From positions 1 to 64,000 of the IMG/VR virus record IMGVR_UViG_3300040856_003829: a stretch of DNA of 64,000 bases; one strand, given 5' to 3'. The notes below the pieces were generated by a model. The model was given only the letters and a program-made list of their open reading frames with translations. It made no database searches and was not told the origin of the DNA. This stretch comes from a virus. Every line of letters begins with the position of its first letter. Position 1 is the stretch's first letter. Both the position numbers and the translations under genes were made by a program. Positions 113 through 43,740 of the stretch are shown in pieces.

Positions 113-397
113 ATGGCAAAAGAATTAAATGAAGAAACATCATTTAACGTAAGTATTAAAACACTGGCAGGTATTGCAGTTTTCATTTTTACCGTAGTAG
201 GTTTATGGTTTACGTTAAAGGCAGACATCGAAGAGGCTAAAGAATTACCTCTACCTCAAGCACCTGAAATAACAAGAATGGAGTTTGATATGAAAGATCA
301 GTTGGTTCGTCAGACTATCATGACAACTCAACAAGATGTGACTGAAATAAAATCTCAACTAATTAGATTAGAAGAGAAAATCGATGAATTAGATTGA
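113..397 (+). CDS. Small membrane protein with C-terminal coiled coil
   Basis: 94 aa. One hydrophobic segment at about residues 19-37 is followed by a charged, helical tail (about 60-94) with heptad-like spacing, ending IRLEEKIDELD. It resembles the 102-aa protein at 5436-5744: both begin with an (E/D)(E/D)TSF-(N/G)-(V/I)-x-IK motif, then one membrane helix, then a helical tail. The two paralogues bracket the secreted-protein block. A lysis accessory (holin or spanin-like) role is possible but not shown. The stop is one base before the next gene, so the pair is probably co-translated. Confidence 0.7.
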   Translation: MAKELNEETSFNVSIKTLAGIAVFIFTVVGLWFTLKADIEEAKELPLPQAPEITRMEFDMKDQLVRQTIMTTQQDVTEIKSQLIRLEEKIDELD

Positions 398-398
398 G

Positions 399-752
399 AT
401 GAAAAGGTTACTATTATCCCTTTTTTTCCTCACACCTTTTTTAGGATTTTCACAAACCGAATTATGTGACGGATATGGTGAAATTTGTGTGATACAATTT
501 AATGCAGGATTTAATGAAGCAAATAAAGTACAATGGTTACCTGAATTATCAGATTGTACTACATCATTTGTAGACATTTTAACTGATCCAACTATACCAC
601 AAACTTATAAAATCGTAGTGGTACCAACAATACTTATTATTGATGAAGGTGAGGAAGTTGGTCGATTCCAAGCTAACATTATGATGCAAATGGAATCCAC
701 AAAAGAGGATGTACAAAATTCAATAGAAGAAATAATCATGAGTAAATTTTAA
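399..752 (+). CDS. Secreted thioredoxin-fold protein lacking the CXXC motif
   Basis: 117 aa with a Sec signal peptide (MKRLLLSLFFLTPFLGFSQ). The mature part follows the thioredoxin layout: a strand ending IQFNAGFNEANK where active thioredoxins have FWAxWCGPCK, then VVVPTILI with the conserved proline, then the EGEEVGRF strand. The two redox cysteines are replaced by Asn and Asn, so disulfide exchange is unlikely. Two other cysteines lie early (LCDGYGEICV) and one in the middle (SDC). It sits directly before the very cysteine-rich secreted protein, so a chaperone-like role in its export is an inference. The fold call is from motif order only. Confidence 0.6.
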   Translation: MKRLLLSLFFLTPFLGFSQTELCDGYGEICVIQFNAGFNEANKVQWLPELSDCTTSFVDILTDPTIPQTYKIVVVPTILIIDEGEEVGRFQANIMMQMESTKEDVQNSIEEIIMSKF

Positions 753-757
753 ATAAT

Positions 758-3700
758 ATGAGATATCTTATATCACTATCTTTTTTTTTAATCAGTATGA
801 TTGGACTTGGTCAACCAACTTACTTAGATCTTTTTATACAATTTGACCAATACCCGTCTGAAACTTCTTGGTTAGTTACTTCAGGAAATGATACTATATA
901 TTCTAGTCCCAGTTATGATTTCCAAGAGTATGTTAATAGTACTGTAGAACAACGTTTATTTTTAGAATCGGGAGTAGAGTATAAATTTTACATGAATGAT
1001 ACATTCGGAGACGGAATTTGTTGTGATTATGGTCCTGGATATTTTACTCTAGAAAATGAATGTCAAGGTCTTATCGTTGAAGACCTTGAATTTGGTCAAA
1101 ATTCAATAGACTATTCATTTACTTTATCTCCTTGTATTCCAGAGATACCAACTGCTAATGTTTTATTTAGAGTAGATTTGGCTAACGCCCCTCCTTCAAT
1201 AGGAACTCCGGGTGTTTTAGGTAGTTGGAATGGTTGGCAAGTGATTCCAATGACTTATGATGAAAATGAAGAATGGTTTTTAGAAGTTGAAGTACCATTA
1301 GGAAACCATCTATGGAAATTTGCCGATTTTAACGATCCAAATATTCAAGAATTGCCTGTCGGAATTGATGGTGGTTCTTGTTTTTTATTTGATGGTAATG
1401 GATTCGTAAATAGAACTATAAACATAACTTCAGAAGAACAAGTGATTCTTCCCCCTTATTGTTGGGAATCATGTTTACCCTGTGGGGGTATAGCAGGGTG
1501 TTCTGACCCAAGTGCCCCTAACTGGAATCCTTGGGCAAATTTTGACGATGGTTCTTGTGTATCACAAAATATAGAATGTGCCCCTGGTGAGTCAGTACTT
1601 GAAATAGTAGTAACACCTGATAACTTTGGAGGTGAAACAAGCTGGTTATTATATGGACCTGGTGATCAAGTATACGCTACAGCACCCGCAGGTACTTATG
1701 CTGGATCTCCTGCTGGTGTTCCTATATCAACCGAAGTATGTGTTACTACAGGAGGTGAATATGACTTAGTTATAGAAGATTCTTTTGGTGATGGTTTATG
1801 TGGTCCTTGTGCTACTAATAATCCTAACCTTGTTACAGGTAATGTTGAAATTTTAGATTGTGATGGAGAAGTATTATGGAGTCTTTTAGACGAAAAAGAA
1901 GATGGTAACTTTGGATACAACATAACTTCAGCTTTAGTTTCCCCTTCTACTTCCTGTGGGTTAATATCAGTAATAGCAGGATGTACTGACCCAGCTTATG
2001 TTGAGTATAACCCAGAAGCTACTACTTTTTTAGCAGGGTCATGTGTAACACCTGTAGTAGTAGGTTGTACAGATCCTACTCAATTCAATTTCAACCCTGA
2101 AGCTAATACTGAAGAAATTATAGAATCTTGTGAGTTTACTTTGACTATTAAAGATGGTGTAGGTGATGGTTGGTTTGGGAGTTGGTTAGGAATATATCAG
2201 CTCGGTACAATATTTAATTCACCCCAATACCAAATGGGTCCTAATGATGGTACCGAATTATCATTTGATATATCTGGTTTAGATGCTACTCAACCTGCAT
2301 ATTTTTACTTTTTTGTAACACCTCAATCTATAGGAACAGCCCAACAGTGTGGGTTCACTTTAACTAACTCTAATGGTGATGTTATCATCGATGTTCCTTT
2401 CTTTAATATAATTCCTTTCATTAATGAAAGTGGTTGGTATAGGTATGAAGTAACTCCTTACTGTGGTAATACTTGTATTCCTTACATAGAAGGATGTACA
2501 GCCCCAGCAGCAATTAATTATAATGATGAGGCTAACACTAATGATGGTAGTTGTATATACTTCCCAGGATGTACTAACCCTGCATATGTTGAGTACTCTG
2601 AAGAGGCTGATGTAGATGATGGTTCCTGTTCAACATTAGTCGTATTTGGTTGTACAGATCCGGATGCTTTTAATTTTGATGAAGAAGCAAACACAGATAA
2701 CGATGGTTGTATTCCCAAAATATTTGGTTGTACTAATCCATTAGCTTTTAATTTCGATCAGAATGCAAACACTCCTGACGGATCCTGTATTGCAATTCAA
2801 GAGGGTTGTACCGATCCCTCAGCATTTAACTATGAAGAAAATGCGAATACCGATGATGGGTCATGTGTTGAAGTAATTTTTGGTTGTACATTAGATGGAT
2901 CATTTAATTTTGATCCTTTAGCTAATACAGATAACGGATCATGTATACCTAAAGTTTTAGGTTGTATGGATGATACCGCATTAAACTTTAACCCAGATGC
3001 TAATATAGAAGATGGTTCATGTATTACTGCAATCTATGGTTGTACAGATTCAACAGCATTTAACTACAACGAACTAGCGAATGTCGATAATGAATCTTGT
3101 ATTGAAGTAATAGAAGGGTGTATGGATCCATTAGCGTTAAATTTTGATCCATTAGCGAATGTAAACAACTTTGAATGTACAATCCCTGAATATGGGTGTA
3201 CAGATCCAACGGCGTTAAATTTTAATGAATTAGCGAATGTTGATAACGGAACATGTATTCAAGTTGTTGAGGGTTGTACTAACCCTGAGGCTTTGAATTT
3301 TGATGAAAGTGCTAATGTAGATGACTTTAGTTGTATACTTCCGATTTACGGTTGTACTGACCCAACAGCTTTCAACTACAATGAATTAGCAAATATCGAT
3401 AATGATTCTTGTGAAGAAGTAGTGGAAGGTTGTACTGACCCTGAAGCGTTGAATTATAACGAACTGGCTAATGTTGATGACTTCAGTTGTATATTACCTA
3501 TATATGGTTGTACAGACCCCGAAGCGTTCAACTTTAATGAATTAGCAACTGTAGATAATGGTACTTGTATAGAAATTGTAGAAGGATGTACTGATCCTTC
3601 AGCTTTTAACTTTAACCCGGAAGCAAACACTGAAGACTTTAGTTGTGAACCATTCATTTACGGCTGTACAGACCCACAAGCTGCTAATTATGATGAAGAA

Positions 3701-4138
3701 GCTAATACAGATAACGGTACTTGTGAGACAGTATATCAAGGATGTGTAGATCAAACAGTCGAAAGTTATAATTTACTCGATCCAGTAAATTCACAATGTT
3801 TTGCGTGGGTACTAGATGTGTCACCTGATTGTTGTGATAATGAATGGAATACTGGTTGTCAATCACTATATGAATACTGTTTCGAAAATGGAGAGACAAC
3901 AAATGTGAACGAAATACTCAATCAACAAATAATAGTATATCCTAACCCAACATTAGACATAATTAATTTCTCATCACAAATTAATTTTACAACATCTTTG
4001 TTCAATTCAATGGGACAGAAAATAATAGATCTAAATAATCCACAATTATTGGATATGTCCAAATATGAATCGGGGGTATATCAATTAATTATAGATGTTA
4101 ATGGAAATCAATTCAGTAAAAAAATAATTAAACAATGA
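758..4138 (+). CDS. Giant secreted Cys-repeat protein with T9SS type A sorting domain
   Basis: 1126 aa. A signal peptide is followed by N-terminal beta-rich segments, including two with the pattern DGxGDGxxG or DSFGDGLCG, and then about 20 tandem units of roughly 37 aa built on GCTDPxAxNY...ANxDDGSC. The paired cysteines and Asp-rich ends suggest small disulfide-stapled, possibly calcium-binding modules. The last ~75 residues (from IIVYPNPT, through FNSMGQKI and GVYQLIID, to FSKKIIKQ) match a type IX secretion type A sorting domain, which is cleaved when proteins are attached to or released from the outer membrane of Bacteroidota. Such domains are a host feature, so this protein should use the host T9SS. 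Its stop overlaps the next start (ATGA). Role unknown; adhesin-like surface display is an inference. Confidence 0.85.
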   Translation: MRYLISLSFFLISMIGLGQPTYLDLFIQFDQYPSETSWLVTSGNDTIYSSPSYDFQEYVNSTVEQRLFLESGVEYKFYMNDTFGDGICCDYGPGYFTLENECQGLIVEDLEFGQNSIDYSFTLSPCIPEIPTANVLFRVDLANAPPSIGTPGVLGSWNGWQVIPMTYDENEEWFLEVEVPLGNHLWKFADFNDPNIQELPVGIDGGSCFLFDGNGFVNRTINITSEEQVILPPYCWESCLPCGGIAGCSDPSAPNWNPWANFDDGSCVSQNIECAPGESVLEIVVTPDNFGGETSWLLYGPGDQVYATAPAGTYAGSPAGVPISTEVCVTTGGEYDLVIEDSFGDGLCGPCATNNPNLVTGNVEILDCDGEVLWSLLDEKEDGNFGYNITSALVSPSTSCGLISVIAGCTDPAYVEYNPEATTFLAGSCVTPVVVGCTDPTQFNFNPEANTEEIIESCEFTLTIKDGVGDGWFGSWLGIYQLGTIFNSPQYQMGPNDGTELSFDISGLDATQPAYFYFFVTPQSIGTAQQCGFTLTNSNGDVIIDVPFFNIIPFINESGWYRYEVTPYCGNTCIPYIEGCTAPAAINYNDEANTNDGSCIYFPGCTNPAYVEYSEEADVDDGSCSTLVVFGCTDPDAFNFDEEANTDNDGCIPKIFGCTNPLAFNFDQNANTPDGSCIAIQEGCTDPSAFNYEENANTDDGSCVEVIFGCTLDGSFNFDPLANTDNGSCIPKVLGCMDDTALNFNPDANIEDGSCITAIYGCTDSTAFNYNELANVDNESCIEVIEGCMDPLALNFDPLANVNNFECTIPEYGCTDPTALNFNELANVDNGTCIQVVEGCTNPEALNFDESANVDDFSCILPIYGCTDPTAFNYNELANIDNDSCEEVVEGCTDPEALNYNELANVDDFSCILPIYGCTDPEAFNFNELATVDNGTCIEIVEGCTDPSAFNFNPEANTEDFSCEPFIYGCTDPQAANYDEEANTDNGTCETVYQGCVDQTVESYNLLDPVNSQCFAWVLDVSPDCCDNEWNTGCQSLYEYCFENGETTNVNEILNQQIIVYPNPTLDIINFSSQINFTTSLFNSMGQKIIDLNNPQLLDMSKYESGVYQLIIDVNGNQFSKKIIKQ

Positions 4139-5190
4139 AAAAAATATTAATACTAAGTTTATTATTGATACCTTTTGTAAGTTTCGGACAAACAAAAGAA
4201 GAGTCTAACTTCAAAAAGAATCTAAAAAAGAATCTTAAGTTTGCAACCTTATATACTGCGGTAACTGGAAATAATTCACTAGCTGATGTGAATACATATT
4301 CCTTATTACCTGATGGTAGTTTAGAGTATGGTTCAGTACAAACTCCATTTGATTATACTTTAGCATTTGGTGTTAGAAAGATTGCAAGATTAGGATACGA
4401 AAATAGGAAAAATGTATTTTACAATGGTACTGAGACATCTGTTTCAGATGCAGCTACAGTAGGAAGAATAAAAGGATTAGAATTTTTATTTGAAGCTGAC
4501 TATAAAAGACAACAAGGTAATTACTTTGTAGATCAACAACATTTTTTAAGATATGTACATGACCATTGGATTTTAAAAGGTGAATATGTACAGGACGGTT
4601 TTGCCGATATTAAATATTTTGAGTCTTCACAAAGATATAGATACAATGTTGGGGAAAAATTATCATTCAATGTCGGTTTAGTACAAAGATTCTCTGAACC
4701 TTATGGATTTAACCCTCTATCCGATCTAGTCGGGGCTGATTTTACTTTAGTGGCTTTAGATGAAGGGTACTATAGTAATTTTGAGGGTCAATGGTTTGAT
4801 ATTGATGATAATCAAGTGGCGGACAATAGTGAAATTTGGAGAGGTGTTGTGTTACCTGACGTATTGAACAATTATGTTGAACAAGAAAGATCACAATTGC
4901 CAAATCAATGGAATCATTCATTGGTTTTAGGTTATGACTACTATCATTATACTAAAGACTTATGGTTACACTCTTGGGCCAGTGCATTACCATTACACGT
5001 CAGTAGTAAGAACGAATTTTCATATACTAACTTTATTGAAGGAAATCAGTGGTTTGATTACACCGCTGGTTTAATTTTTGGATATAAAATTAATAAAAGT
5101 TTGGGTGTTTTCTTGGAAGGAAAATATCACAAATACTGGAATCGTAATTGGCATGACTTCTCAGTAGGATTCAATTACGTAATAATATAA
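4135..5190 (+). CDS. Putative outer-membrane beta-barrel protein
   Basis: 351 aa with a clear signal peptide (MKKILILSLLLIPFVSFGQ). The mature protein has many alternating aromatic/polar strands (for example LRYVHDHWILKGEYV, YRYNVGEKLSFNVGL, SLVLGYDYYHYTKDLWL) and ends in NRNWHDFSVGFNYVII, with an aromatic near the C-terminus as expected for a barrel beta-signal. The start overlaps the stop of the T9SS-tailed protein by 4 nt, which argues for co-translation and a joint role at the outer membrane. I do not recognise a specific family. Confidence 0.65.
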   Translation: MKKILILSLLLIPFVSFGQTKEESNFKKNLKKNLKFATLYTAVTGNNSLADVNTYSLLPDGSLEYGSVQTPFDYTLAFGVRKIARLGYENRKNVFYNGTETSVSDAATVGRIKGLEFLFEADYKRQQGNYFVDQQHFLRYVHDHWILKGEYVQDGFADIKYFESSQRYRYNVGEKLSFNVGLVQRFSEPYGFNPLSDLVGADFTLVALDEGYYSNFEGQWFDIDDNQVADNSEIWRGVVLPDVLNNYVEQERSQLPNQWNHSLVLGYDYYHYTKDLWLHSWASALPLHVSSKNEFSYTNFIEGNQWFDYTAGLIFGYKINKSLGVFLEGKYHKYWNRNWHDFSVGFNYVII

Positions 5191-5217: not shown

Positions 5218-5439
5218 ATGGGATTCAAAGACATTTTTAAAGACGAAAACGACATAAACGAAAAGTCAGTTGTAGGTTTTTTGTCATTCGCAGTTATGGT
5301 AGCAATAGCTTTAATTGATACTATCACTGGTTGGTTAGGACGTGATTTACTTATAAATGAATATATATACAATTCATTTGTAATAGTTACACTTGGAAGT
5401 TTTGGTATTGCAGGTATAGAAAAATTTGCAAAAAAATGA
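5218..5439 (+). CDS. Small two-helix membrane protein (holin candidate)
   Basis: 73 aa. A charged N-terminus (GFKDIFKDENDINEKS) is followed by two hydrophobic segments (about residues 20-37 and 50-66) joined by a short GWLGRDLL loop, and a basic tail (EKFAKK). Size and topology fit small class II-type holins, but many phage membrane proteins look like this and there is no diagnostic motif. The stop overlaps the next start by 4 nt. Confidence 0.6.
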   Translation: MGFKDIFKDENDINEKSVVGFLSFAVMVAIALIDTITGWLGRDLLINEYIYNSFVIVTLGSFGIAGIEKFAKK

Positions 5440-5744
5440 AATTAAACGATGACACTAGTTTTGGAATTAATATTAAATGGTTAATTCAAATTATTGTTGG
5501 TGTAGGAGGAGCAGTTTGGTTGTATTTTACAATTATGTCTGCTCTTACCCATCTAGAAATGGAAACTCTGAGGCATAATCAAGAAATAGAACTTAATTCA
5601 GAATTTCGTATTAAATGGCCAAGAGGTGAAATGGGCTCACTTCCCGATGATGCTGAACAAAATTTAAGACTTAATCATTTGGAAAGAGACATAGAACATC
5701 TTGAAATATTAGTTGATGAATTAAGACAAAAAAATTGTGAATAA
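5436..5744 (+). CDS. Single-pass membrane protein, paralogue of the first gene
   Basis: 102 aa. The N-terminus LNDDTSFGINIK precedes one transmembrane helix (about residues 14-33) and a long charged helical tail (LNHLERDIEHLEILVDELRQK) likely to form a coiled coil. It matches the 94-aa protein at 113-397 in architecture and in the TSF...IK motif. It overlaps the holin candidate by 4 nt, consistent with a joint membrane or lysis function, which remains an inference. Confidence 0.65.
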   Translation: MKLNDDTSFGINIKWLIQIIVGVGGAVWLYFTIMSALTHLEMETLRHNQEIELNSEFRIKWPRGEMGSLPDDAEQNLRLNHLERDIEHLEILVDELRQKNCE

Positions 5745-5775
5745 AAAAAGGACCTCAATTGAGGTCCTTTTTTTT
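5744..5775 (+). terminator. Bidirectional intrinsic terminator
   Basis: An uninterrupted palindrome GGACCTCAATTGAGGTCC (5750-5767) is flanked by an A run and a T run. It lies between two convergent genes and fits termination in both directions. Confidence 0.9.
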
Positions 5776-6480: not shown

Positions 6481-8346
6481 ATGGGAAAAGTTATTGGAAT
6501 TGACTTAGGAACCACTAATTCATGTGTATCAGTCGTTGAAGGTGGTGAACCTATTGTTATTGTAAATAAAGAGGGAAAACGTACAACCCCTTCAATCGTG
6601 TCTTTCAAAGATGGTGAAAGAATTGTAGGTGATCCAGCTAAAAGACAATCAGTTACAAATCCAGAAAATACTATCTATTCAGTAAAACGTTTCATTGGTA
6701 GTAGTTTTAAAGAGGTGTCTAGAGAAGCTAAGAAGATGCCATATAAAGTTGAAAAGTCTTCGAAAGGTTCCGTGAATCTTGTCATAAACGATAAGAACTA
6801 TGTTCCACAAGAAATTTCTGCAATTGTACTTCAAAATCTAAAAAAGACTGCTGAAGATTATCTAGGTGAATCGGTAACACAGGCAGTAATTACTGTACCG
6901 GCTTATTTCAATGACGCACAAAGAAATGCGACTAAGGAAGCTGGTGAAATTGCAGGGTTGGAAGTTTTGAGAATTATCAATGAACCAACTGCAGCATCCC
7001 TTGCTTACGGTTTAGGTGATGATAAAGATCGTAAAGTTGCCGTTTATGATTTGGGTGGAGGAACTTTCGATATTTCTATTTTAGAAATGGGTGACGGAGT
7101 TTTCGAAGTACTCTCGACAAATGGTGATACTCATCTGGGTGGTGACAACTTCGATGAAGTTATTATCGATTGGTTGATCGAAGAATTCAAGAAAGAAAGT
7201 GGGGTTGATGTATCGTCTGACTCAGCTGCATTACAAAGACTAAGAGAAGCCGCTGAAAAGACTAAGATCGAACTATCTTCTACCAGTTCTTCTGAAGTTA
7301 ACTTACCTTATCTTTCAGCCGATCAATCCGGACCAAAACACTTGGTCAGAACGATCAAAAAAGCTGAATTCGAAAGAATGATTGAGTCTTTAGTTAAAAA
7401 TACTATTTCACCTTGTCGTAAAGCATTGAAAGATGCTAAATTGAAAGTTTCCGATATTGATGAAGTAATCTTGGTCGGAGGGTCTACTAGAATTCCTGCA
7501 ATTCAAGAGGCTGTAGAAAAGTTCTTTAAAAAACAACCTTCTAAGGGAGTAAATCCTGATGAGGTAGTTGCTATGGGTGCTGCGATCCAAGGAGGTGTAT
7601 TGGCCGGTGATGTAAACGATGTTCTCTTGTTGGATGTTACACCTTTATCACTAGGTATCGAAACACAAGGTGGAGTCATGACTAAACTTATTGATTCGAA
7701 TACAACGATTCCTACGTCTAAATCACAAACATTTTCAACAGCAGTAGATAATCAACCAACTGTTGACATTCATGTATTACAAGGTGAAAGACCTATGGCT
7801 ATGGATAATAGAACACTAGGTAGATTTCAGTTAACTGACTTACCACCTGCACCTAGAGGTATCCCTCAAATCGAAGTAAGTTTCGATATAGATGCTAACG
7901 GTATCATTTCAGTAACTGCAAAAGATAAGGCCACAGATAAACAACAAAATATTAAGATTGAATCTGGAAGTAGTCTTTCTGATGAAGAAATTGAAAGAAT
8001 GAGACAAGAAGCTTTGGAAAATGAAGAATCCGATAACCAAAAGAAACAAGAAGTTGAAAAGTTGAATATGGTTGACAGTACTATTTTCCAAACTGAAAAA
8101 CAAATTTCAGAATTCGATGATAAATTGACTGAAGAAGATCGTGAATCTTTGACTGCTAAACTTGAAGAGTTAAAAAAGGTTTATGAAGAAAAGGATTTCG
8201 AAAATATGGATGATTCCCTACAATCATTAAACGAGACATGGGCTGGTATATCTACTAGATTGTATCAAGAGACATCATCTGATGAGACTGAAGATGTTGA
8301 TGATGTAGAGACTACCGATGTCGAAGTAGAAGAAGTAAAAGAATAA
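6481..8346 (+). CDS. dnaK: Chaperone DnaK (Hsp70)
   Basis: 621 aa, close to full bacterial length. The ATPase domain is complete: [11 protein letters not shown] phosphate-1 motif, [11 protein letters not shown], the [11 protein letters not shown] adenosine region, [12 protein letters not shown] phosphate-2, and [12 protein letters not shown] substrate-binding domain follows ([14 protein letters not shown], helical lid) with an acidic C-terminal tail ending EVEEVKE, resembling the bacterial EEVD-like tail. It should act in the cytoplasm with DnaJ and GrpE, neither of which is encoded in this window, so host partners are probably used. DnaK is uncommon in phage genomes. A 62-aa membrane protein follows after 3 nt. 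Confidence 0.97.
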
Positions 8347-11007: not shown

Positions 11008-11454
11008 TCAATTATTCCTAGAATTACTACTATTTCTTGGTTTTTTTTCTACCGATGGTGAATTAGGTCTCGTTGTAGACCCCACACCTCTCTGTCCGTT
11101 TATATCTCTTGTCTTATATTCATTTGGACCTAAAGTATTACCATATTGATCTTTATTACGACTATTTTCAATATTTTGACCAGACCAAATAGATGGTCTT
11201 TTAGATATTGTAACGTTTTGAGGTTTCGTTTCAGGATTTATATAGTAATAATTGTATTGGTTTCCATAATAAGGGGTAAATCTATTATAACCCCAATAAT
11301 ATGGTGATACATTGTTACCACTATTGTCAAAAAATGTGTAATTATTTGGTAAATCACAATTAAAATCAGAGTATAATTCGTCACATTGATAAGTCATCAA
11401 TTCAGGATTTATACATCCAATCAGTAATGGAAATAAGTAAAATAGTTTTTTCAT
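11008..11454 (-). CDS. Putative lipoprotein, Asn/Tyr-rich
   Basis: 148 aa. A lipoprotein signal ([14 protein letters not shown]) gives a lipid-modified Cys at residue 14. The mature part is rich in Tyr, Asn and Pro ([20 protein letters not shown]) with a disordered basic tail. It overlaps the stop of the giant Cys-repeat protein upstream by 4 nt, so it is likely made with it and displayed at a membrane. No family recognised. Confidence 0.6.
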
Positions 11455-14400
11455 CGGAAAACAGTTATGTGACCTACTTTACGAACGTCTTTAATAGGTT
11501 CATAAGTACGACCTCTTATTATATAAGTATAAACTCCATCAGATACATAATACTCACCTCCTTGAAAACTTATATCCCAATAATCTGCGGGATTATTTGT
11601 TTCCCAAACTTTATTACCCCAACGATTAAATATAATCACTTCCCAAAAAAACCAACACTCTTCAGGGGTAACTGGGAACCATACATCATTAACTCCATCA
11701 TTATTAGGGGTAACAGTATTGGGAACATAAAGAGGTGGATCATCACATTCATATTCACATGATCCATCATTAACAATTGCCCATTCTTCATAATTCAAAG
11801 CTTCTGGATCAGTACAACCAGAACAAGTTGAGTTGTTTCCTCCACATATACCACATAAATCATATTCGTTGAAGTTACAATCACAATCACCTTCAGGTAT
11901 ATTATAACAACCACATTCATATATTGCTCCGGGACCTCCACAAATACCACATTCATCTAAAACGTTCCCATCACAATCACAAGCACCTTCCGGTATATCA
12001 TCACATCCACATTCATAGATAGCCCCTGGACCGTCACACACTCCACATTCGTCTAAAACATTTCCATTACAATCACAATCACCTTCAGGTATATCATTAC
12101 AACCACATTCGTATATTGCTCCTGGTCCATTACATACTCCACATTCGTCCAAAACCGCATCACCACCACATTCACCTAAACAATCAGGATATTCACAACT
12201 ACCATCTTCTACATTAGCTTTAGAGTTATAATTACAAGCTGTTGGGTCTGTACATCCAGATTCGAATGGAACACAAGAACCATCATCACAGGTTGCATTT
12301 GGATCATAATTGAAAAAATTTGGATCAGTACAACCTTCGATACATTCAACTGTAACAATAATGAAATACTCACCGAAATTATTGGTGAAATTCAATTCAT
12401 TAAGATTATTATTACCTAAAACATCAATTACGTTTATTTGTAACAATCCCAGAGGAAAATCATTAGGATCTGTACTGAATTGAATTGTAATTTCTTGACC
12501 TGGATTCAGATTATTACCACAATATATATTTCCTAAAGTAACTTCATCAACACAAAAAGAAGTTGCGACTGCATCCCCTACATTTGTCAATGTTAATGAC
12601 CAATCAATCATCGGATCACAAATAAATTGTGTACAATATTGAGTATTTGTTAATGATGTAATTTCAATATCAGGATAATCATATTCACAACTTCCATCAT
12701 CTAAATTTGCGTTTGGGTCATAATTATTTGCAATTGGATCTGTACAACCTAGGTATTCACAACTTCCATCATCTACGTTTGCGTTAGGATCATAATTATC
12801 TGCAACATCATCAGTACAACCCAAAAATTCACAAAAATCTTCACAGGTCGCATTAGGATTAAAATTAGACGCTAAAGGATCCATACAACCTAGAATACAA
12901 ACAGGAGGTGCTGGGAGGACTATACAGTACTGATTGTTTGATGAATTAATATCATCAAAATTTACAACATCCATATCAACACATAGAGTATCACCTTCTT
13001 GCCAAGTTAATTCTTGGTTTATAGTATTTATTACATTTGATACTCCTGGTTCAAGGATAAAATCAAGAAAATCTTGACCTAATCCGTAAACTGAATTGAC
13101 ACTTGTAAATGTATCAGTTGAATGCTGATAAGAATAGTTTTCAATCGGTAAATCTCCGACATTAGTATATTGAACATGAAATCTAATTCCTGGTGAACAA
13201 CTATCACCAGAATTAAAGATATTACAACTCGAATTTACAACCCAGACACTGTCCACTTGTATATCGTAATACAAACAACTACCATCATCTTCCTCGGCAT
13301 TCGGATTATAATTTTCAGCATTTACATCGGTACAACCTGGAATTAGACATGGATCCCAAATAAAATCTTCAGGTGATGTGAATATTAAAGTATCATTCGA
13401 ATTATTATTATCAAACGGAACTACATTATTTACTACAAACATTATTTCTGTAATCTCACCGAAAATAAAATTATTTTCAGGATTAATTGGGATATAAGCA
13501 AAGTCTTGAAAATCACCTGGTGGAATTTCTAACCAATAAAAATCTTCAGTATCGTAATCATATGTATTTACTAATGTATTATTAATATGTAATTCTACCG
13601 AGTATGAATCTGCTGTCACATCTCCCTCATTAATTAGTGAATAAGAAGGATCAAATCTCCATTGATTTGGTGGAAGACCTTCATAATTACAATCCCAACC
13701 AATTGATATATTACTGAAAGTTAAATCTGTATAAATACATGACCCATCGTCTACCTCAACCCATGGATAGTAGTTATATGCGTTAGGATCTGTACAACCT
13801 TCAGTCAGACATTGAGCGTATAAAATACCTTCTGTACCAATTTGAATTGTATTATCAGAACCCGGTATTTCACCATCAATACCAGAAAGAACTGCAGTTA
13901 TATTTTGTAAAGGAATATCGAAGTCGAAGTCTGAAGCCCATAGAGTATCATTATACTGATACTGAAACACAAAATTAGGTAAAATTAATTCATTAAAAGT
14001 TTCACTATAAAGTACTCCTTCGTCAGTATTATAGTACAAAGTAACAGTGAATTCGTCGAATGAAACATCACCAAAGTTATGGATATTAAATGATGGTATG
14101 AAAAACCAATCTAATGTATCTACAACATTAGCTACACATCCATATTGCATTTGTATATAAGGTATTGCACCATCGATCTCGAAACAATCACCTAATTGGT
14201 ATATATTGTTGTAAGGTGTAATGTCGGGATAAGTGTAACCATTATCGTATTGATCAATACAATTATCTTCACCATCGTTAAAACCATAAATTGAATTCGA
14301 ACAATTTATTTGCCAAATTGCAAGTTGAAGACATCCAGTATCAAAATAACCTAGACTATCAACTGTGTTTAAACATGAATCATTGAATGCCCCTACAACA

Positions 14401-14774
14401 AAAGCATCATCTAAATGAAAAATCAGAGTATCTCCAGTATTGAGTAAACCATCCTCACCTAGATATGCAGTACTATCATTCCATAAAGGAGTATTAGGAA
14501 AATAATTTTGTAATACAAATCCTGGATAATTATATGCCCCAGGTAATCCACAAGCAAATTCATCCTGTTGTAAATCTTGAGACGTAAAACTTAGTATAAA
14601 AGAATCTATAACGTCATCAGTCAAATCATTTGGATTACAACCAAATCCATTATTTACTGCTATGGTGATCTCTAATGTCTCCACATCGTAGTTAAGTATT
14701 TCTAAGTCACACTGAGCATAGTTGCTACTTACAATTGAAAAAATTGCAAGTAATGTAAGTAATATATTTTTCAT
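11451..14774 (-). CDS. Giant secreted Cys-repeat protein with gliding-motility / T9SS type B tail
   Basis: 1107 aa with a signal peptide ([21 protein letters not shown]). Beta-sandwich-like segments alternate with about eight units of the GCTDPxAxNY...DDGSC type found in the protein at 758-4138. A run of EGF-like [19 protein letters not shown] repeats follows. The C-terminus ([51 protein letters not shown]) is the gliding-motility-associated C-terminal domain, a T9SS type B sorting signal that tethers proteins to the surface of Bacteroidota. Function unknown; a phage-encoded surface adhesin or coat for the infected cell is an inference. Confidence 0.87.
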
Positions 14775-22522: not shown

Positions 22523-23020
22523 TTACTGATTAACTACGTCGAATTGGTTATTATCAGCTCTTCTATTAATAGTAATAAAATAATCTGACAATTCTAAAAC
22601 ACCTGTAATTGATTCGTAAGTCCTACCATTCGTAAATCTAATCTTACTGATCGGTACAGTCTTGAATAAATTAACTTCACTTTCTCTAAGGTTGTACCAA
22701 GCGTTACCTTCACAATTAAACTTGTTCCAGGATGTTTTTGTAATCTTTTCACCGTTTTCGAAAAGAACAATCATTTCAACGTTTTCCACACATGATCCTA
22801 ATCCGACTATTTTAGCCATGATACCATCGAATACGGGATCAGGGGAGTTGTATTTCCATGCCGATTCTATTCTAAAACCAGCATTGTTTTCGATAAATAC
22901 TTGACCATCATCAGACCAATAAACTTTGTCTGACATTTCATCTACTATTTTAGTAAGTGTCTGTGAGTATGATGTTAATGCTATAAAAATACTAGCAATA
23001 ATTAGTGATAATTTTTTCAT
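22523..23020 (-). CDS. Secreted hypothetical protein
   Basis: 165 aa with a signal peptide (MKKLSLIIASIFIALTSYSQ). The mature part is beta-rich, with MIVLFENGEKITKTSW and KIRFTNGRTYESI, and two cysteines (GSCVENV, FNCEGN) that could pair. It is the last gene in a chain of three short secreted proteins with 1-nt or overlapping junctions. No family recognised. Confidence 0.65.
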   Translation of the reverse strand: MKKLSLIIASIFIALTSYSQTLTKIVDEMSDKVYWSDDGQVFIENNAGFRIESAWKYNSPDPVFDGIMAKIVGLGSCVENVEMIVLFENGEKITKTSWNKFNCEGNAWYNLRESEVNLFKTVPISKIRFTNGRTYESITGVLELSDYFITINRRADNNQFDVVNQ

Positions 23021-23436
23021 TAGTAATATCGTTTTTTAATTTTATTTGTTACTTCCGTTTTAGGTATTATATAATGATAAACGTCATCTGTGTCTAAATC
23101 ACTTATAGCGATATAAAAACGATGACCATGTAAATTCCAAACAGTGTTGACTGGTATACCGTTGAGTAACATTCGATCATCTATTTTGAATGCACCTCTG
23201 AGTAAACCCTTACCTACCACACATCTATCAATAATATAATTAAGTTCCTTTTCTTTTATGTATAATATATCCTTTTGTAATTCCTCACCATAAGGTAGAA
23301 GATTACCATATTCATCGATGTTAGGTTGACTCTGTTCTAAGCCTAACAATACCTCATAGTAACCATCATTGGTTTGTGAGATCATTGACAATGAACATAA
23401 TATTGATAAAGATAATATTAATATTTTTTTATTCAT
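23020..23436 (-). CDS. Secreted hypothetical protein
   Basis: 138 aa from the ATG at 23436, chosen because it gives a clean signal peptide (MNKKILILSLSILCSLSMISQ); two in-frame ATGs lie slightly upstream. The mature protein (GYYEVLLGLEQ, IDRCVVGKGLLRGAF, VWNLHGHRFYIAISDL) is unfamiliar. It overlaps both neighbours' ends by a few bases, consistent with operon translation. Confidence 0.6.
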   Translation of the reverse strand: MNKKILILSLSILCSLSMISQTNDGYYEVLLGLEQSQPNIDEYGNLLPYGEELQKDILYIKEKELNYIIDRCVVGKGLLRGAFKIDDRMLLNGIPVNTVWNLHGHRFYIAISDLDTDDVYHYIIPKTEVTNKIKKRYY

Positions 23437-23911
23437 CCTCATTTTGTTTTTGTCCAAAATAACTGAAATAATATTTATGTGGTGGGTATCCTAAATACAT
23501 GTATGTCCACTGACCATAGTGTCTCAATCTTCCAGTTTCCCAAAATCTCCACTTCTGGTCTTCATCGTCAAATGACAAAATGTCTACATCGAATTCATTG
23601 TATGAGCCAAGATCATCTTCACCTTCTCTCATTTTTCCAATATAATTACAGAAATACTTAGCTTCACCAATATCATTTACCATCACGGTACCGAACATAT
23701 CATCTCCTCCCTCAGAACTATAGAAGTCTACATTGAATACAAACTTCCATTCACGAGTACTACCATTATCGTAAATCCAATCACCATCGACAGATTTCCA
23801 ACCTCTTAGTCTTTCGTAGGTCTTAGAAAAAGACCCTTCGATTTCTACATATTGACCATAAGAGTTAGAAATAGTCAAACATAGTAATAATAAACCTAAT
23901 AATTTTTTCAT
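23429..23911 (-). CDS. Secreted hypothetical protein
   Basis: 160 aa. Signal peptide MKKLLGLLLLCLTISNSYGQ, then an aromatic-rich beta protein (WKSVDGDWIYDNGSTREWKFVFNVDFYSS, HYGQWTYMYLGYPPHKYYF). The Trp/Tyr density suggests a lipocalin- or barrel-like fold, but no motif supports a name. Shares one base with the zinc-ribbon gene upstream. Confidence 0.6.
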   Translation of the reverse strand: MKKLLGLLLLCLTISNSYGQYVEIEGSFSKTYERLRGWKSVDGDWIYDNGSTREWKFVFNVDFYSSEGGDDMFGTVMVNDIGEAKYFCNYIGKMREGEDDLGSYNEFDVDILSFDDEDQKWRFWETGRLRHYGQWTYMYLGYPPHKYYFSYFGQKQNEDE

Positions 23912-24111: not shown

Positions 24112-24114
24112 ATG

Positions 24115-24929: not shown

Positions 24930-24931
24930 TC

Positions 24932-25519
24932 TTAATTATTAATAAAAAATTCTGTCCAATCAATACCTTTCACATTTTTATTTTCAAAATAAAAACTAAA
25001 GGAATCATTATTTACTATAATAGTTTTTCTGAATGCGTCAGGTACTGTAGCACCACTATCTAATTCTTCACTTTCATCTGAAAAAATCACTTCAATAATT
25101 ACTTTAACTTCTCCATATAAAAATGCTAAATCTCTCTCTAACCCTTCGAGGGATTTCCAGGGACCTCTATTTAGTGATTCATGTTGTAGACTACAATTTA
25201 AGTAACTAAATGTTTGTCTTAGAGTTTCTTCATTACATGAAAATGCTGCTGCAGGTGCCATATGACCTTTATCCCACACATTATTACGATAATCATCATT
25301 ATCAGAAGTATGGACATTTTTATCTTTTACAAAGTCTAAACCAGATCTAGAAAATTTACCGTTTGTACATTTTACCAGATATTTGACTTTAAGGGGTTGT
25401 TCTAACTTTTCAGAATATGACACTTCGAACACATCATTTTTAATTTCAATTATTTGTGAATATGAAGTTAAAAATGAAAGTAGGGTGGGTATAAGTAAAA
25501 TTAGTTTTAAATTATTCAT
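24932..25519 (-). CDS. Secreted DNA/RNA non-specific endonuclease (NUC1 family)
   Basis: 195 aa from the ATG at 25519. Signal peptide LKLILLIPTLLSFLTSYSQ. The beta-beta-alpha-metal catalytic motif is DKGHMAPAAAF (His general base; usual form DRGHxxP), preceded by the conserved RSGLDF, with the metal-binding Asn in the NCSLQHESLNRGPWKSLE helix. It should cut DNA and RNA outside the cytoplasm. It follows a metalloprotease with an 8-nt overlap, so the two are co-expressed secreted hydrolases. Confidence 0.88.
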   Translation of the reverse strand: MNNLKLILLIPTLLSFLTSYSQIIEIKNDVFEVSYSEKLEQPLKVKYLVKCTNGKFSRSGLDFVKDKNVHTSDNDDYRNNVWDKGHMAPAAAFSCNEETLRQTFSYLNCSLQHESLNRGPWKSLEGLERDLAFLYGEVKVIIEVIFSDESEELDSGATVPDAFRKTIIVNNDSFSFYFENKNVKGIDWTEFFINN

Positions 25520-27689
25520 TACCATGTAAATATATTTTTCTTGTAATTATATCACCGTTAGAATAATATTCAACTATTATGTAAATTCCAGGGGTTAGTG
25601 TTGCATCTTGATTAGTCTTTCTACCCATAATGTCATAAAATTCTTTATATATTATTTCTATGCAATTGGGATCTTTAATTTCTGTAATATTAGATACTTC
25701 ACCATATGTTTGGTTTATCAAATCAAAAACCCATTCAGGAGGTGAATTGACTATTGTTTGTTCTGAACCGCAAACCGTTCCGTACACCTCTAATAAATCT
25801 AGAATATCATTTAAATCTATTTGTAAATCATTATTGAAATCAAATTCACTACATTCAATTAATTGACCAGGAGGTGTCGATAAAAATGTAAGTAAGTCTT
25901 GGATACCTACTGTTCCATCACCATCAAAGTCTCCTTGACATTCTACTGGAGGACAATATAAAGTACAAAAATCAACTTCTAGTATACTACCGTAGTCTAA
26001 TTCGTCTAATTGAGATAGATCAAATATGATGTTCTCATTTACTATTATATTAATAAAAACATTATAATCTGCGTCACACACTCCGTCATTGTTGAAATCA
26101 AAAGCACACATACCATCACCGTTAGTATCAGTAATTATAAAAGTATAACACCCGTCAGGTAAACAAGAAGATTTTACAAATATTGAATCCTGTTGAAATG
26201 TTGACCAATTACCGTCATACATTACAACTTCTCCAGACTCATCTATTATTTCCCAATTAATTTCATTTGACCATACATCAGGACTTATGTGTACTTCAAC
26301 CCAGTTTTGTTCAATAACTTCAACTACTTGTGTGATAGTGTTATTTCCCAAGAATTCATCTAAATCATATAATACTTCAGCTTCAATTATACCATCACCT
26401 AAAACAAAATCATTAATGGGTATTAAAACAAATCCTGAAGGTTCGATAGTTGGTACATTATACTGAGTATTATTAACTAATAAAGTTACTCCTTCAGCGG
26501 GTTCTCCACCAAAATTGTTTATTTTAACATTGAAGTCTATAGTTTCTAAACACCAATCTGAAGGAACTGTTATAGATGTTATACCAACGTCCTTAGAAGT
26601 AGGTGATTGACAAGATACATTATCAGTTGACACTAGATAAGGTAACCCTGTCCAAACTTCTTCACGCATACGTTCAATTTGTCCTTGAGTAAATGCGGTT
26701 TTACATTGTTCACCCGTGTAGTCCATGTAATTTTGTAACATTGCATCAGGACAACTAGCAAACTCAGGAGAACACCCTTGGTTAGAAGTTGTTGGGGGAG
26801 TATCTGGAACTTGATCTCCTTGAGTACATGGGTTAGTTTCAGAATCACAATCTGAGGTTGTAAACCCATTACTAAAAGTGTGGAATAAATTAAAAGCATG
26901 TCCAATTTCATGTGCCCAAGTAGCATTTAATTCTCTGCCAGATTTTAGTGTGCCCGTAATCCCCGTTACATTATATAAACAAACTGGGCCATAGATGTAT
27001 CCGTTTATTCCTGTGCCAGAAGAACCAAGGTATGAAAATCCTTGAATACCATTATTACCATTATTACCATTTATTTCAGTAACTACATAGCAATTAAAAT
27101 ATTTATCTACTGGCCAATGGTATAATTGTTTTAAGTAAGTATGGGGGATTCCAGTAAGCCCAGGGGCAGTTCCAGGATCATTACTTATACCATCTTCAGC
27201 GTATGATTCAAATACGGGTTGACTACCAGCATTATTAGTATAAGTTAGGTCACTACCATCGTATCTCATAATACCATCAGTTGGTTCATTGTTTGGATCG
27301 CGAGCAGCCAAACAAAATTCAATTTTTGAGTCTTTTACTAATGATAATTCATACTCGTCATATTGATCAGTTAGAGCAGCTAAAGATTCAACATCACCTC
27401 TAAATCGATGATTAAGATTTTCTATACAACTTAAGATTTGTTCGTCGGAGATATTGGTCTCCACCCCCAAAGGTTCACCTAAGTGTATTACGTGAAACAC
27501 TACTGGGATAGTAAGTACTTGTGCTGTGTCTAAATCGACTTCGGGTGCACAAGCAACTCGTTCCGTATATAATTGTTGTAGAAACGGATTTCTACGAATC
27601 ATTTCATCAGTTCCACATTCGTCTTGAGAAAACGTAATAAACGGAACTAATAAAATTAAAGATAAGAAAAAACTTTTTAAGTTTACCAT
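25512..27689 (-). CDS. Secreted M43 (pappalysin/cytophagalysin-like) metalloprotease with dockerin-like repeats
   Basis: 725 aa from the ATG at 27689, which gives the signal peptide VNLKSFFLSLILLVPFITFSQ. The N-terminal region up to about residue 350 holds the zinc site HEIGHAFNLFH (260-270) and the Met-turn NYMDYTGEQC, typical of M43 gluzincin/metzincin-type proteases. Beta-sandwich segments follow, then two Ca-binding dockerin-like loops (DFDGDGTVGIQDLL, DFNNDLQIDLNDIL), and a C-terminal YDIMGRK...PGIYIIV...ITRKIYL stretch like a T9SS type A tail. Paralogue of the next gene. Confidence 0.9.
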   Translation of the reverse strand: MVNLKSFFLSLILLVPFITFSQDECGTDEMIRRNPFLQQLYTERVACAPEVDLDTAQVLTIPVVFHVIHLGEPLGVETNISDEQILSCIENLNHRFRGDVESLAALTDQYDEYELSLVKDSKIEFCLAARDPNNEPTDGIMRYDGSDLTYTNNAGSQPVFESYAEDGISNDPGTAPGLTGIPHTYLKQLYHWPVDKYFNCYVVTEINGNNGNNGIQGFSYLGSSGTGINGYIYGPVCLYNVTGITGTLKSGRELNATWAHEIGHAFNLFHTFSNGFTTSDCDSETNPCTQGDQVPDTPPTTSNQGCSPEFASCPDAMLQNYMDYTGEQCKTAFTQGQIERMREEVWTGLPYLVSTDNVSCQSPTSKDVGITSITVPSDWCLETIDFNVKINNFGGEPAEGVTLLVNNTQYNVPTIEPSGFVLIPINDFVLGDGIIEAEVLYDLDEFLGNNTITQVVEVIEQNWVEVHISPDVWSNEINWEIIDESGEVVMYDGNWSTFQQDSIFVKSSCLPDGCYTFIITDTNGDGMCAFDFNNDGVCDADYNVFINIIVNENIIFDLSQLDELDYGSILEVDFCTLYCPPVECQGDFDGDGTVGIQDLLTFLSTPPGQLIECSEFDFNNDLQIDLNDILDLLEVYGTVCGSEQTIVNSPPEWVFDLINQTYGEVSNITEIKDPNCIEIIYKEFYDIMGRKTNQDATLTPGIYIIVEYYSNGDIITRKIYLHGNE

Positions 27690-29707
27690 GAATTTATATA
27701 TATTTTTTTTGTTATAACAGTACCATCCGACCATTTCTCAGTCACTAGATATACACCAGGACTTAAATCAGCAGGAGATAATACAATTACTTGTTTTCCT
27801 GACATATCATAATAAGAAGGATCACCAACAACATAATGATCACTTAATGAAATATATTTTTTATTTTCTATTACACCTTCAGCACATAACATACCGTAGT
27901 TATCGACCAATAAATTAATATCGTCTTGATTTATAAAACCATCGAAATTAAAATCCCCAGGAGTACAATAACCAACTTCAGTATCCATATTAGTTAGTAA
28001 TACAAGTAAATCTTTGTTATTTACTACATTATCGTCATTTAAATCCCAAGGACAGATATCTGTTTCTAATTCACATGTATAGTCAACACAGAAATTTTCA
28101 CTATATTCTGACCAACTACCACTACTAGTATATGAGGAAATTTCCTCACCATTTATTGTTATAGTATATTCACCACCATATTGCCACCCATTACCATCAC
28201 TATCATATAATGTAAGGGTGTAACAACCGTCTGGTAAGCATAACTCATATACACGAGTTGTAATACCAGCACCAAATCCTCCCTCATCTAACAGCACATT
28301 ACCAACTTCGTCAGTTAATGTGTAAGTATTTTGATTTGCAAAAAATTCAGTTGTAACTGCAAGTTCAAGTAGACTTTCGTTTTCAACTATTACACTTTCG
28401 AAAGCTGTGTTGTTAGAAGGGTATTCATCACCATCTAAAATAACCTCAAAATTAAATTGACCATTACCTAAAGTATAATCTACAAATTCCATAACCGTAA
28501 AATCACCACTAGGGATGGTTGGTAGATCATATAGTGTGCCATTTATTGAAAGTACTCCATCAACAGCATCATCACCACCTAAATTATTAACTTTAACATT
28601 AAAACTTATAAGACTTTGACACCAACTTTCAGGTAAACCATAAACACCTGTTATTGCCAGATCTTTAGAACTTAATGACTGACAATTATAGTTGTTATTT
28701 ATTACTCCATTCATATCAGACCATAACACATTCCTCATCTCTTCTATCTGGTTTTGAGTAAACATAATCCTACAAGATTGACTTGTATAATCCATATAAT
28801 TTTCAGTTATTGCATCTTCACAATCTGGAAAACTACAACTGATATTTGAACTTGTTACTGGGGTATCTGGTATGTAATCACCATTAGTACATGTAGATTC
28901 GCCAGTACAATTCGTTGTGTTCCAAAATGTATGATATAAACCTAGTGAATGACCTACCTCATGTGCAGTAGTTGAATTTAAATTACCTAATTTTATGTTA
29001 CCTACAGTACCTGCCACATTATAAAGTAATACTGGACCTGAATTACAACTCGTACCGTAGTAACCAATATATGAGTATCCTTGTATACCTCCTCCTCCGT
29101 TATTACCACCTATTTCAGTTACTATCCATATATTATAGTATTTTTCAGTATCCCAACAACCTAGTGTTGATTTCATCCAGGAATCACTAATACCTGAAGA
29201 TTGACTGTCTATTGCAACACCATCTTCAGCATAAGATTCACCATTATATACTAAATTGGACCCATCATGTCGGACAATACCATCTGTTGGTTGATTATCA
29301 GGATCCCTTTGAGCCATACAGAATTCAATTTTACTATCTATTGCCAATGATAATTGATATTCATCATATGATTGAGTACCTGAACTTGATACTAATTGTG
29401 ATAAAGCATCTGTATCGGCCCTAAATCTATGATTTAAATTTTCAACCATACTTAAGACCTGTTCATCTGAAATATTTGTCTGCTCCCCAACTGGTTCACC
29501 TAAATGTACAATGTGAACAACTACAGGGATAGTAAGAACTTGTGCCGTGTCTAGATTAACTTCTGGTGCACATGCAACTCGCTCCTCATACACTTGTTGT
29601 AAAAACGGATTTCGATTTATTATCTCATCGGTACCGCATTCTTCTTGTGAAAACACAGAAAAAATCGAAATAATGTAAAAAACCGACAAGAATAATAGAT
29701 TTTTCAT
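27683..29707 (-). CDS. Secreted M43 metalloprotease with dockerin-like repeats (paralogue)
   Basis: 674 aa from the ATG at 29707, giving signal peptide MKNLLFLSVFYIISIFSVFSQ. Same order as its neighbour: EECGTDEIINRNPFLQQVYEERVACAPEV pro-region, zinc motif HEVGHSLGLYH (249-259), Met-turn NYMDYTSQSC, beta-sandwich region with YDSDGNGWQYGG, dockerin-like DLNDDNVVNNKDLL and DFNFDGFINQDDI, and a T9SS-like end (YDMSGKQV, PGVYLVTE, ITKKIYI). Overlaps the other protease by 7 nt. Tandem duplication with divergence suggests different targets. First gene of the minus-strand secretome operon. Confidence 0.9.
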   Translation of the reverse strand: MKNLLFLSVFYIISIFSVFSQEECGTDEIINRNPFLQQVYEERVACAPEVNLDTAQVLTIPVVVHIVHLGEPVGEQTNISDEQVLSMVENLNHRFRADTDALSQLVSSSGTQSYDEYQLSLAIDSKIEFCMAQRDPDNQPTDGIVRHDGSNLVYNGESYAEDGVAIDSQSSGISDSWMKSTLGCWDTEKYYNIWIVTEIGGNNGGGGIQGYSYIGYYGTSCNSGPVLLYNVAGTVGNIKLGNLNSTTAHEVGHSLGLYHTFWNTTNCTGESTCTNGDYIPDTPVTSSNISCSFPDCEDAITENYMDYTSQSCRIMFTQNQIEEMRNVLWSDMNGVINNNYNCQSLSSKDLAITGVYGLPESWCQSLISFNVKVNNLGGDDAVDGVLSINGTLYDLPTIPSGDFTVMEFVDYTLGNGQFNFEVILDGDEYPSNNTAFESVIVENESLLELAVTTEFFANQNTYTLTDEVGNVLLDEGGFGAGITTRVYELCLPDGCYTLTLYDSDGNGWQYGGEYTITINGEEISSYTSSGSWSEYSENFCVDYTCELETDICPWDLNDDNVVNNKDLLVLLTNMDTEVGYCTPGDFNFDGFINQDDINLLVDNYGMLCAEGVIENKKYISLSDHYVVGDPSYYDMSGKQVIVLSPADLSPGVYLVTEKWSDGTVITKKIYINSW

Positions 29708-29769
29708 AAAAAATTTATTAGATTTTAAAAAAATTATACTCGAGTCGTTGTCCATAAATAGTACATTTA

Positions 29770-43739: not shown

Positions 43740-43740
43740 G

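What the first reader, a model, noticed from the sequence alone, without database searches (positions are those of the whole stretch)
758..4138. Phage-encoded giant Cys-repeat protein carrying a T9SS type A sorting domain
About 20 GCTDPxAxNY...DDGSC units end in a YPNPT...GVYQLII...KKIIKQ domain, the signal for export by the Bacteroidota type IX secretion system. A phage protein dressed for the host's outer-membrane secretion and anchoring route is unexpected and suggests surface remodelling of the infected cell (superinfection block, aggregation or adhesion).
Basis: partly seen in the sequence, partly recalled or inferred. Interest (0 to 1): 0.85.

Follow-up and report, generated by a model that had tools for sequence, protein, structure and literature searches.

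The report
Phage surface-display module using host T9SS
A large virus of marine Bacteroidota bacteria carries a giant cysteine-repeat protein tagged for the host's own type IX export system, and the gene turns out to belong to a conserved block of at least four genes found in hundreds of marine phage contigs and almost nowhere else, which suggests that these viruses rebuild the outer surface of the cells they infect.

Summary
Confirmed. ORF 758-4138 (1126 aa) has a signal peptide, 19 GCTDP..C units and a C-terminal domain above the cut-offs of TIGR04183 and Pfam PF18962. Its modelled fold matches a solved T9SS cargo signal (8glk_D, TM 0.76). The contig is a phage (terminase, portal, protease, major capsid). 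A chimera is unlikely: independent viral contigs carry the homologue beside terminase and portal, in one case inside the head-gene operon.

The finding is larger than reported. The gene sits in a conserved module: 94-aa membrane coiled-coil protein, secreted thioredoxin-like protein lacking CxxC, T9SS giant, and a predicted 12-strand outer-membrane barrel whose start overlaps the giant's stop by 4 nt. The barrel family is in at least 585 IMG/VR contigs, and on only six contigs from 84,980 species genomes, all MAGs, four plainly phage-derived. Of 60 viral loci with enough flank, all 60 carry the T9SS signal beside the barrel. dN/dS is 0.03-0.19. The phage also encodes a type B T9SS protein and two secreted M43 peptidases.

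Phage-encoded T9SS cargo was described in 2020; I found no report of this module. Most likely it displays a phage protein on the infected cell late in infection, perhaps for superinfection exclusion. Secretion and function are untested.

The parts
758..4138 (+). Giant Cys-repeat protein, 1126 aa, T9SS type A cargo (P0001)
   Evidence: ORF; TIGR04183 33.2 bits, PF18962 32.7 bits; homologues in 27 viral loci
758..814 (+). Sec signal peptide, residues 1-19, Gln after the likely cleavage site
   Evidence: heuristic plus direct reading; conserved across homologues
1148..1426 (+). CBM48/glycogen-binding-like domain, residues 131-223
   Evidence: Foldseek to AMPK glycogen-binding domain 1z0m TMt 0.62-0.64; PF16561 below cut-off
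2492..3724 (+). Sixteen consecutive GCTDP-x-A-x-N-[YF]..DDGSC units, residues 579-989 (three more at 247, 408 and 436)
   Evidence: tandem repeats of period 78/156
3929..4135 (+). T9SS type A C-terminal sorting domain, residues 1058-1126
   Evidence: seven strands at pLDDT 59-83; 8glk_D TMt 0.76
113..397 (+). TM94: 94 aa, one N-terminal transmembrane helix and a C-terminal coiled coil; most conserved module member (54-79% identity)
399..752 (+). Secreted thioredoxin-like protein without CxxC (P0003)
   Evidence: PF00085 in 13 of 14 members, best E 1.6e-5; profile hits solved thioredoxins; 0 of 80 members with CxxC
4135..5190 (+). Predicted outer-membrane beta-barrel (P0004), 351 aa, signal peptide, ATG overlapping the T9SS gene's stop by 4 nt
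   Evidence: 53-73% identity over 17 members; 12 long strands; best solved matches are OM barrels
5218..5439 (+). 73-aa protein with one strong and one weaker hydrophobic segment (holin-like by topology only), next to the module in a subset of phages
5436..5744 (+). 102-aa membrane protein distantly like TM94 (phrog_20984)
5743..5775 (+). Palindrome GGACCTCAATTGAGGTCC followed by eight T, likely terminator closing the operon
   Evidence: direct reading; not reported by the scan
11451..14774 (-). Second giant Cys-repeat protein, 1107 aa, T9SS type B CTD (P0002)
   Evidence: PF13585 CHU_C 53.2 bits, cut-off 27; TIGR04131 29.8, cut-off 35
25512..27734 (-). Secreted M43 metallopeptidase with dockerin-like EF-hands and a degenerate type A tail (P0005)
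   Evidence: PF05572 64.5 bits; TIGR04183 15.7, below cut-off
27683..29755 (-). Tandem paralogue, secreted M43 metallopeptidase (P0006)
   Evidence: PF05572 63.6 bits; TIGR04183 11.1, below cut-off

Best explanation
The finding is the cargo gene of a phage-encoded surface-display module. Late in infection the phage makes a giant cysteine-repeat protein that the host Sec system exports to the periplasm and the host type IX secretion system then carries to the cell surface through its type A C-terminal domain. The co-translated outer-membrane barrel most likely receives or anchors it, as SprF/PorP barrels do for adjacent type B adhesins. The thioredoxin-like protein (no CxxC) and the membrane coiled-coil protein probably assist in the periplasm or connect the complex to the inner membrane. 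The displayed layer, built from repeats that resemble the host's own surface proteins, most likely changes what can bind the infected cell. Superinfection exclusion, or stopping progeny from re-adsorbing to the cell and its debris, is my leading guess for the benefit (about 0.4). Shown here: the sequence signals, the conservation, the linkage, purifying selection and, in some lineages, a position among virion genes. Inferred: timing, secretion, the partnership of barrel and cargo, and the function.
For: Type A CTD above both curated cut-offs with the solved cargo fold. Signal peptides on cargo, barrel and thioredoxin-like protein. All 60 viral loci with at least 2.5 kb on both sides of the barrel gene carry the CTD; 57 carry TM94, 57 the thioredoxin-like gene, 56 all four (the sixtieth CTD, L005, is in a broken frame). 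A 4-nt overlap of cargo and barrel in 48 of 88 loci. The barrel is in at least 585 viral contigs against six contigs of species genomes, of which L043-L046 have flanking genes that match viral contigs. In L004 the module lies between prohead protease and scaffold/major capsid; in L021 and L026 between portal and other virion genes. dN/dS 0.08-0.16 for the cargo, 0.03-0.07 for the barrel, 0.05-0.19 for the CTD. Module genes are more conserved than virion genes between the same phages: window against L004 barrel 71%, TM94 78%, terminase 27%, portal 43%, major capsid 47%. Precedents: a porP/sprF gene is commonly directly downstream of a type B cargo and needed for its secretion (PMC12618676); T9SS and gliding genes are needed for infection by flavobacterial phages (PMC9233685, PMC13288928). 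GCTD repeats are common in host-like genomes: 35 of 79 genomes of the order.
Against: No experiment. Type A CTDs are normally handled by host PorV, so a private barrel is not required, and the barrel does not match the PorP/SprF family (no hit). The barrel model has only moderate confidence (pLDDT 65, pTM 0.60). Late timing is read from gene position in some other phages; in the window itself the module is at the contig edge, away from the head genes. Superinfection exclusion is often an early function. The conserved barrel does not look like an arms-race protein.
Confidence: 0.6

Rival explanations
1. Egress module: the outer-membrane barrel, the inner-membrane coiled-coil protein and the periplasmic protein act like a spanin set to breach the outer membrane at lysis, with the T9SS protein weakening or opening the surface layer.
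For: TM94 has i-spanin-like topology (one N-terminal helix, periplasmic coiled coil). A two-hydrophobic-segment holin-like gene follows in a subset of phages. Position among late genes in L004, L021 and L026.
Against: No endolysin is part of the module. The endolysin-like genes of this phage lie elsewhere (38338-39684, 30266-30874). A 1000-residue surface protein with a secretion signal is not needed to break a membrane. The two hydrophobic proteins are assigned by topology only.
Confidence: 0.15
2. Adhesion module: the displayed repeats glue infected cells to each other or to particles and glycans, raising local host density for progeny.
For: Adhesin-like architecture with a CBM48-like domain and a variable unit number, 2-23, median 12. 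T9SS type B cargo with cognate barrels are known or predicted adhesins (PMC12618676).
Against: No lectin or known adhesin domain above a family cut-off. Adhesion would compete with release of progeny.
Confidence: 0.2
3. Export jam: the large disulfide-rich protein occupies host SprA/PorV and so stops the host from displaying its own T9SS adhesins, which serve as phage receptors.
For: T9SS and gliding genes are needed for phage infection in Flavobacterium and Cellulophaga (PMC9233685, PMC13288928). The cargo has 61 cysteines.
Against: It does not explain the conserved barrel, thioredoxin-like and coiled-coil genes. Host-like genomes carry long repeat proteins of the same kind.
Confidence: 0.1
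4. The stretch is host DNA joined to the phage by mis-assembly.
For: Two other assemblies of this phage begin at about 27.1 kb of the window, so the join of 1-27 kb to the rest is not independently confirmed for this record.
Against: G002 and G004 carry the homologue with terminase and portal on one contig. 34 of 50 module-bearing records searched carry a phage portal (phrog_6547). The module is nearly absent from species genomes.
Confidence: 0.02

Closest known systems
Cryophage T9SS cargo genes (Bellas et al. 2020, PMC7468147)
   Same: Phage genes with T9SS type A sorting domains, assumed to use the host's system; exclusion proposed there too
   Different: There three variable, unrelated cargo genes (endoglucanase, GH39, PA14) in one phage; here one conserved cargo family in a fixed module with barrel, thioredoxin-like and coiled-coil genes, in hundreds of contigs
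crAss-like cluster 2 T9SS/BACON proteins (PMC6949934)
   Same: T9SS sorting domains in phage ORFs near head genes
   Different: BACON repeats rather than Cys repeats; no such module reported in the passages read
SprB-SprF / PorP-type cargo-carrier pairs of Bacteroidota (PMC12618676, PMC12635249)
   Same: Large T9SS surface protein with an outer-membrane barrel gene directly downstream
   Different: Those cargos have type B CTDs; the phage cargo has a type A CTD, and the phage barrel matches neither TIGR03519 nor convincingly any Pfam family, and P0004 has no cysteine
Cellular GCTD-repeat proteins of marine Flavobacteriales
   Same: The same Cys-repeat units, mostly 40-60% identity
   Different: The listed cellular matches cover almost only the repeat region of the query; the barrel partner was not found in cellular context at the sensitivity used
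Solved T9SS cargo CTDs (8glk_D, RgpB CTD 7pq4, mirolase CTD 8qb1)
   Same: Fold of the C-terminal domain, TM 0.63-0.76
   Different: Encoded by a phage

Membership tests
T9SS type A cargo (TIGR04183/PF18962) | C-terminal domain above curated cut-off | tested here: met
   33.2 bits vs 23; 32.7 vs 27
T9SS type A cargo (TIGR04183/PF18962) | Sec signal peptide | tested here: met
   Hydrophobic-stretch heuristic and reading; conserved in homologues. No SignalP available
T9SS type A cargo (TIGR04183/PF18962) | Seven-strand Ig-like CTD fold | tested here: met
T9SS type A cargo (TIGR04183/PF18962) | SprA/PorV-dependent export | not testable with these tools
   needs experiment
T9SS type B cargo (P0002) | CHU_C domain (PF13585) above cut-off | tested here: met
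   53.2 bits vs 27
T9SS type B cargo (P0002) | TIGR04131 above cut-off | tested here: not met
   29.8 bits vs 35, E 5e-7
T9SS type A cargo: M43 peptidases P0005/P0006 | CTD above cut-off | tested here: inconclusive
   15.7 and 11.1 bits vs 23; the second half of the motif is visible
PorP/SprF carrier family (P0004) | TIGR03519 match | tested here: not met
   No match for P0004 at E<=1; none in 39 virus records, six in each of two MAGs
PorP/SprF carrier family (P0004) | Outer-membrane barrel gene directly downstream of a T9SS cargo gene | tested here: met
Thioredoxin (P0003) | Thioredoxin fold by profile | tested here: met
   PF00085 in 13/14 members at E<=0.01, best 1.6e-5, though P0003 itself is below the gathering score
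Thioredoxin (P0003) | CxxC active site | tested here: not met
   0 of 80
Spanin (TM94/P0004) | i-spanin topology with partner o-spanin lipoprotein | tested here: inconclusive
   Topology fits for TM94; no lipoprotein partner seen in the module
Tailed phage (the record) | Terminase, portal, capsid protease, major capsid | tested here: met

The most novel reading that the evidence does not exclude
Marine Bacteroidota phages of unrelated virion lineages share a dedicated trans-envelope machine: a T9SS-exported giant fibre carried by a phage-encoded outer-membrane barrel and tied to the inner membrane through a thioredoxin-fold protein and a coiled-coil protein. It would be a new class of phage accessory system that uses a host secretion system to rebuild the surface of the infected cell.
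Probability: 0.35. Interest if true: 0.9.

Novelty: new variant of a known kind. Interest (0 to 1): 0.74.

Why it matters
[quoted passage not shown] Because T9SS-exported adhesins and the gliding machinery are needed for infection by flavobacterial phages, this would link phage entry, exclusion and secretion in one testable system. It also gives four uncharacterised conserved families a common context, and a genetic marker for Bacteroidota hosts in viral metagenomes.

Tried and rejected
Host contamination or chimera: rejected for the gene family on independent contigs with terminase and portal; for this record the 1-27 kb join lacks a second assembly. Virion fibre: disfavoured, because virions assemble in the cytoplasm while cargo, barrel and thioredoxin-like protein carry signal peptides. 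PorP/SprF membership of the barrel: tested, not met. Cyanophage link: Marine virus AG-345-P14 (Kyanoviridae) has a 518-aa ORF with three GCTD motifs but no visible T9SS tail, so the repeat alone does not mark the module. Named phages: barrel, TM94 and thioredoxin-like protein have no match in 50,697 records; BFVD holds one distant structural relative of the barrel, A0A516LKJ4, unnamed. P0002 as a viral-contig query gave nothing by pattern, although relatives exist in L014 and L036-L038. The whole-P0001 model is poor in the repeats (mean pLDDT 53.7), so no fold is claimed for them. A promoter scan was no better than shuffles.

Full report
1. The observation. ORF 758-4138 encodes 1126 aa. It starts with a Bacteroidota-type signal peptide (and reading), holds 19 units of the GCTDP..N[YF]..A...DDGSC kind with 61 cysteines in the protein, and ends in a domain that scores 33.2 bits against TIGR04183 (cut-off 23) and 32.7 against PF18962 (cut-off 27). 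On the model, residues 1058-1126 form seven strands, as described for type A CTDs (PMC12618676), and match solved T9SS CTDs: 8glk_D TM 0.76, RgpB 0.63, mirolase 0.64. A second domain (131-223) looks like the AMPK glycogen-binding domain, i.e. CBM48-like.

2. It is a phage. The window is bases 1-64000 of a 96,160-base IMG/VR record with terminase and portal, prohead protease and major head protein, 11 tRNAs by ARAGORN and 12 by Rfam, a tmRNA, and DnaK. Two other records of the same phage begin at about 27.1 kb, so they support the part from 27 kb on but not the join of 1-27 kb. For the gene family this does not matter: G002 (46 kb) and G004 (75 kb), separate contigs, carry homologues together with their own terminase and portal.

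3. The module. Comparing neighbourhoods showed that the gene comes with the same partners. In the window the order is TM94 (113-397), thioredoxin-like (399-752), T9SS giant (758-4138), barrel (4135-5190), 73-aa membrane protein (5218-5439), TM94-like (5436-5744), then a palindromic terminator read directly. Flanking genes of L043-L046 match viral contigs; L047 and L048 (a Woesearchaeota MAG) are probably phage too, but this is less certain. The search works through degenerate patterns and is not exhaustive. Among 95 viral loci held, 60 have at least 2.5 kb on both sides of the barrel: the T9SS CTD is beside it in 59, and in the sixtieth (L005) the CTD is present in a broken frame. TM94 is in 57, the thioredoxin-like gene in 57, all four in 56. 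Cargo stop and barrel start overlap by 4 nt in 48 of 88 loci. The commonest order is T9SS-barrel-TM94-Trx (59 of 101 loci, MAG loci included).

4. The parts. The barrel family is 53-73% identical to P0004 over 17 members with about 100 invariant columns; the model has 12 long strands and its best matches in the PDB are outer-membrane barrels such as NanC, Tsx, FapF and EspP. Confidence is moderate (pLDDT 65). It matches no sequence in the PDB, no Pfam family beyond two weak single-member hits, and is not PorP/SprF by TIGR03519. The thioredoxin-like family matches PF00085 in 13 of 14 members and solved thioredoxins, but none of 80 members has CxxC. TM94 has one strong N-terminal hydrophobic segment and reads as a coiled coil after it.

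5. Constraint and spread. Close pairs give dN/dS 0.08-0.16 for the cargo, 0.03-0.07 for the barrel and 0.05-0.19 for the CTD alone, so the export signal is maintained. Between the window and L004 the module genes are 62-78% identical while terminase is 27%, portal 43% and major capsid 47%, which suggests exchange of the module between phages under strong constraint. The module occurs with a T4-type terminase and portal (phrog_2, phrog_213) and with another portal family (phrog_6547) in 34 of 50 records. In L004 it is between prohead protease and scaffold/capsid; in L021 and L026 between portal and other virion genes. I infer late expression in those phages.

6. More T9SS candidates in the same phage. 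P0002 (11451-14774, minus) is another giant Cys-repeat protein with a type B CTD (PF13585 53.2 bits). Relatives in L014, L036 and L038 lie next to an M43 peptidase gene. P0005 and P0006 are tandem M43 peptidases with signal peptides and sub-threshold type A tails. A heuristic scan finds about 14 ORFs with signal-peptide-like N-termini on the record. No PorP/SprF gene is present in 39 virus records, so a type B protein would depend on a host barrel.

7. Host. The GCTD repeats are common in the order of a module-containing Flavobacteriales MAG: 35 of 79 genomes, nearly all matches within the repeat region. The phage repeats therefore resemble host surface proteins. I infer a marine Flavobacteriales-like host; no spacer or culture evidence was available.

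8. Mechanism. The signals predict Sec export, T9SS transport and surface display. In Bacteroidota, PorP/SprF barrels encoded directly downstream of type B cargo are needed for their secretion (PMC12618676), and SprF links its adhesin to the gliding track (PMC12635249). The phage arrangement is analogous but pairs a type A CTD with an unrelated barrel, so 'works like a cargo-carrier pair' is an inference and 'is a PorP/SprF' is not met. T9SS/gliding mutants resist a flavobacterial phage (PMC9233685) and gliding proteins are used for adsorption (PMC13288928), which makes superinfection exclusion, or protection of progeny from re-adsorption, the most natural benefit. Egress, adhesion and jamming of the T9SS remain open.

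9. Novelty. Phage-encoded type A cargo was reported as a 'unique occurrence' in Cryophage (PMC7468147), and T9SS domains near head genes in crAss-like relatives (PMC6949934). Seven searches of the open library found no description of this module; subscription papers and preprints were not searchable. None of 50,697 named phage records holds the barrel, TM94 or thioredoxin-like gene at E 1e-5.

Noticed in passing
window 11451-14774 (-): Second giant Cys-repeat protein with a T9SS type B CTD; relatives sit next to M43 peptidase genes in L014, L036 and L038.
   Followed up: partly
window 25512-29755 (-): Tandem secreted M43 (pappalysin-type) metallopeptidases with HExxH motifs (HEIGHAFNLFH, HEVGHSLGLYH), dockerin-like EF-hands and degenerate T9SS tails.
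   Followed up: partly
window 43740-44126 (-): Phage-encoded tmRNA with tag GETFAKLQTLGLIRTEEVYAA.
   Followed up: no
window 6481-8346 (+): Full-length DnaK (NF001413 979 bits) in a phage.
   Followed up: no
window 22523-25525 (-): Cluster of small ORFs with signal peptides of unknown function, between tRNA genes and the M43 pair; about 14 such ORFs on the record.
   Followed up: no
L030 and L031 (record 64-84 kb): Nucleotide-sugar epimerase-like genes (three phrog_540 matches) and a glycosyltransferase (phrog_7162), a possible surface-glycan pathway.
   Followed up: no
L128 3586 onwards: Kyanoviridae record AG-345-P14 has an ORF with three GCTD motifs without a visible T9SS signal, so the repeat occurs in other phages.
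   Followed up: partly
L043, L044, L045, L046, L047, L048: Probable phage contigs inside deposited MAGs (Nitrosopelagicus, Winogradskyella, Sphingobacteriales, Flavobacteriales, Woesearchaeota).
   Followed up: partly
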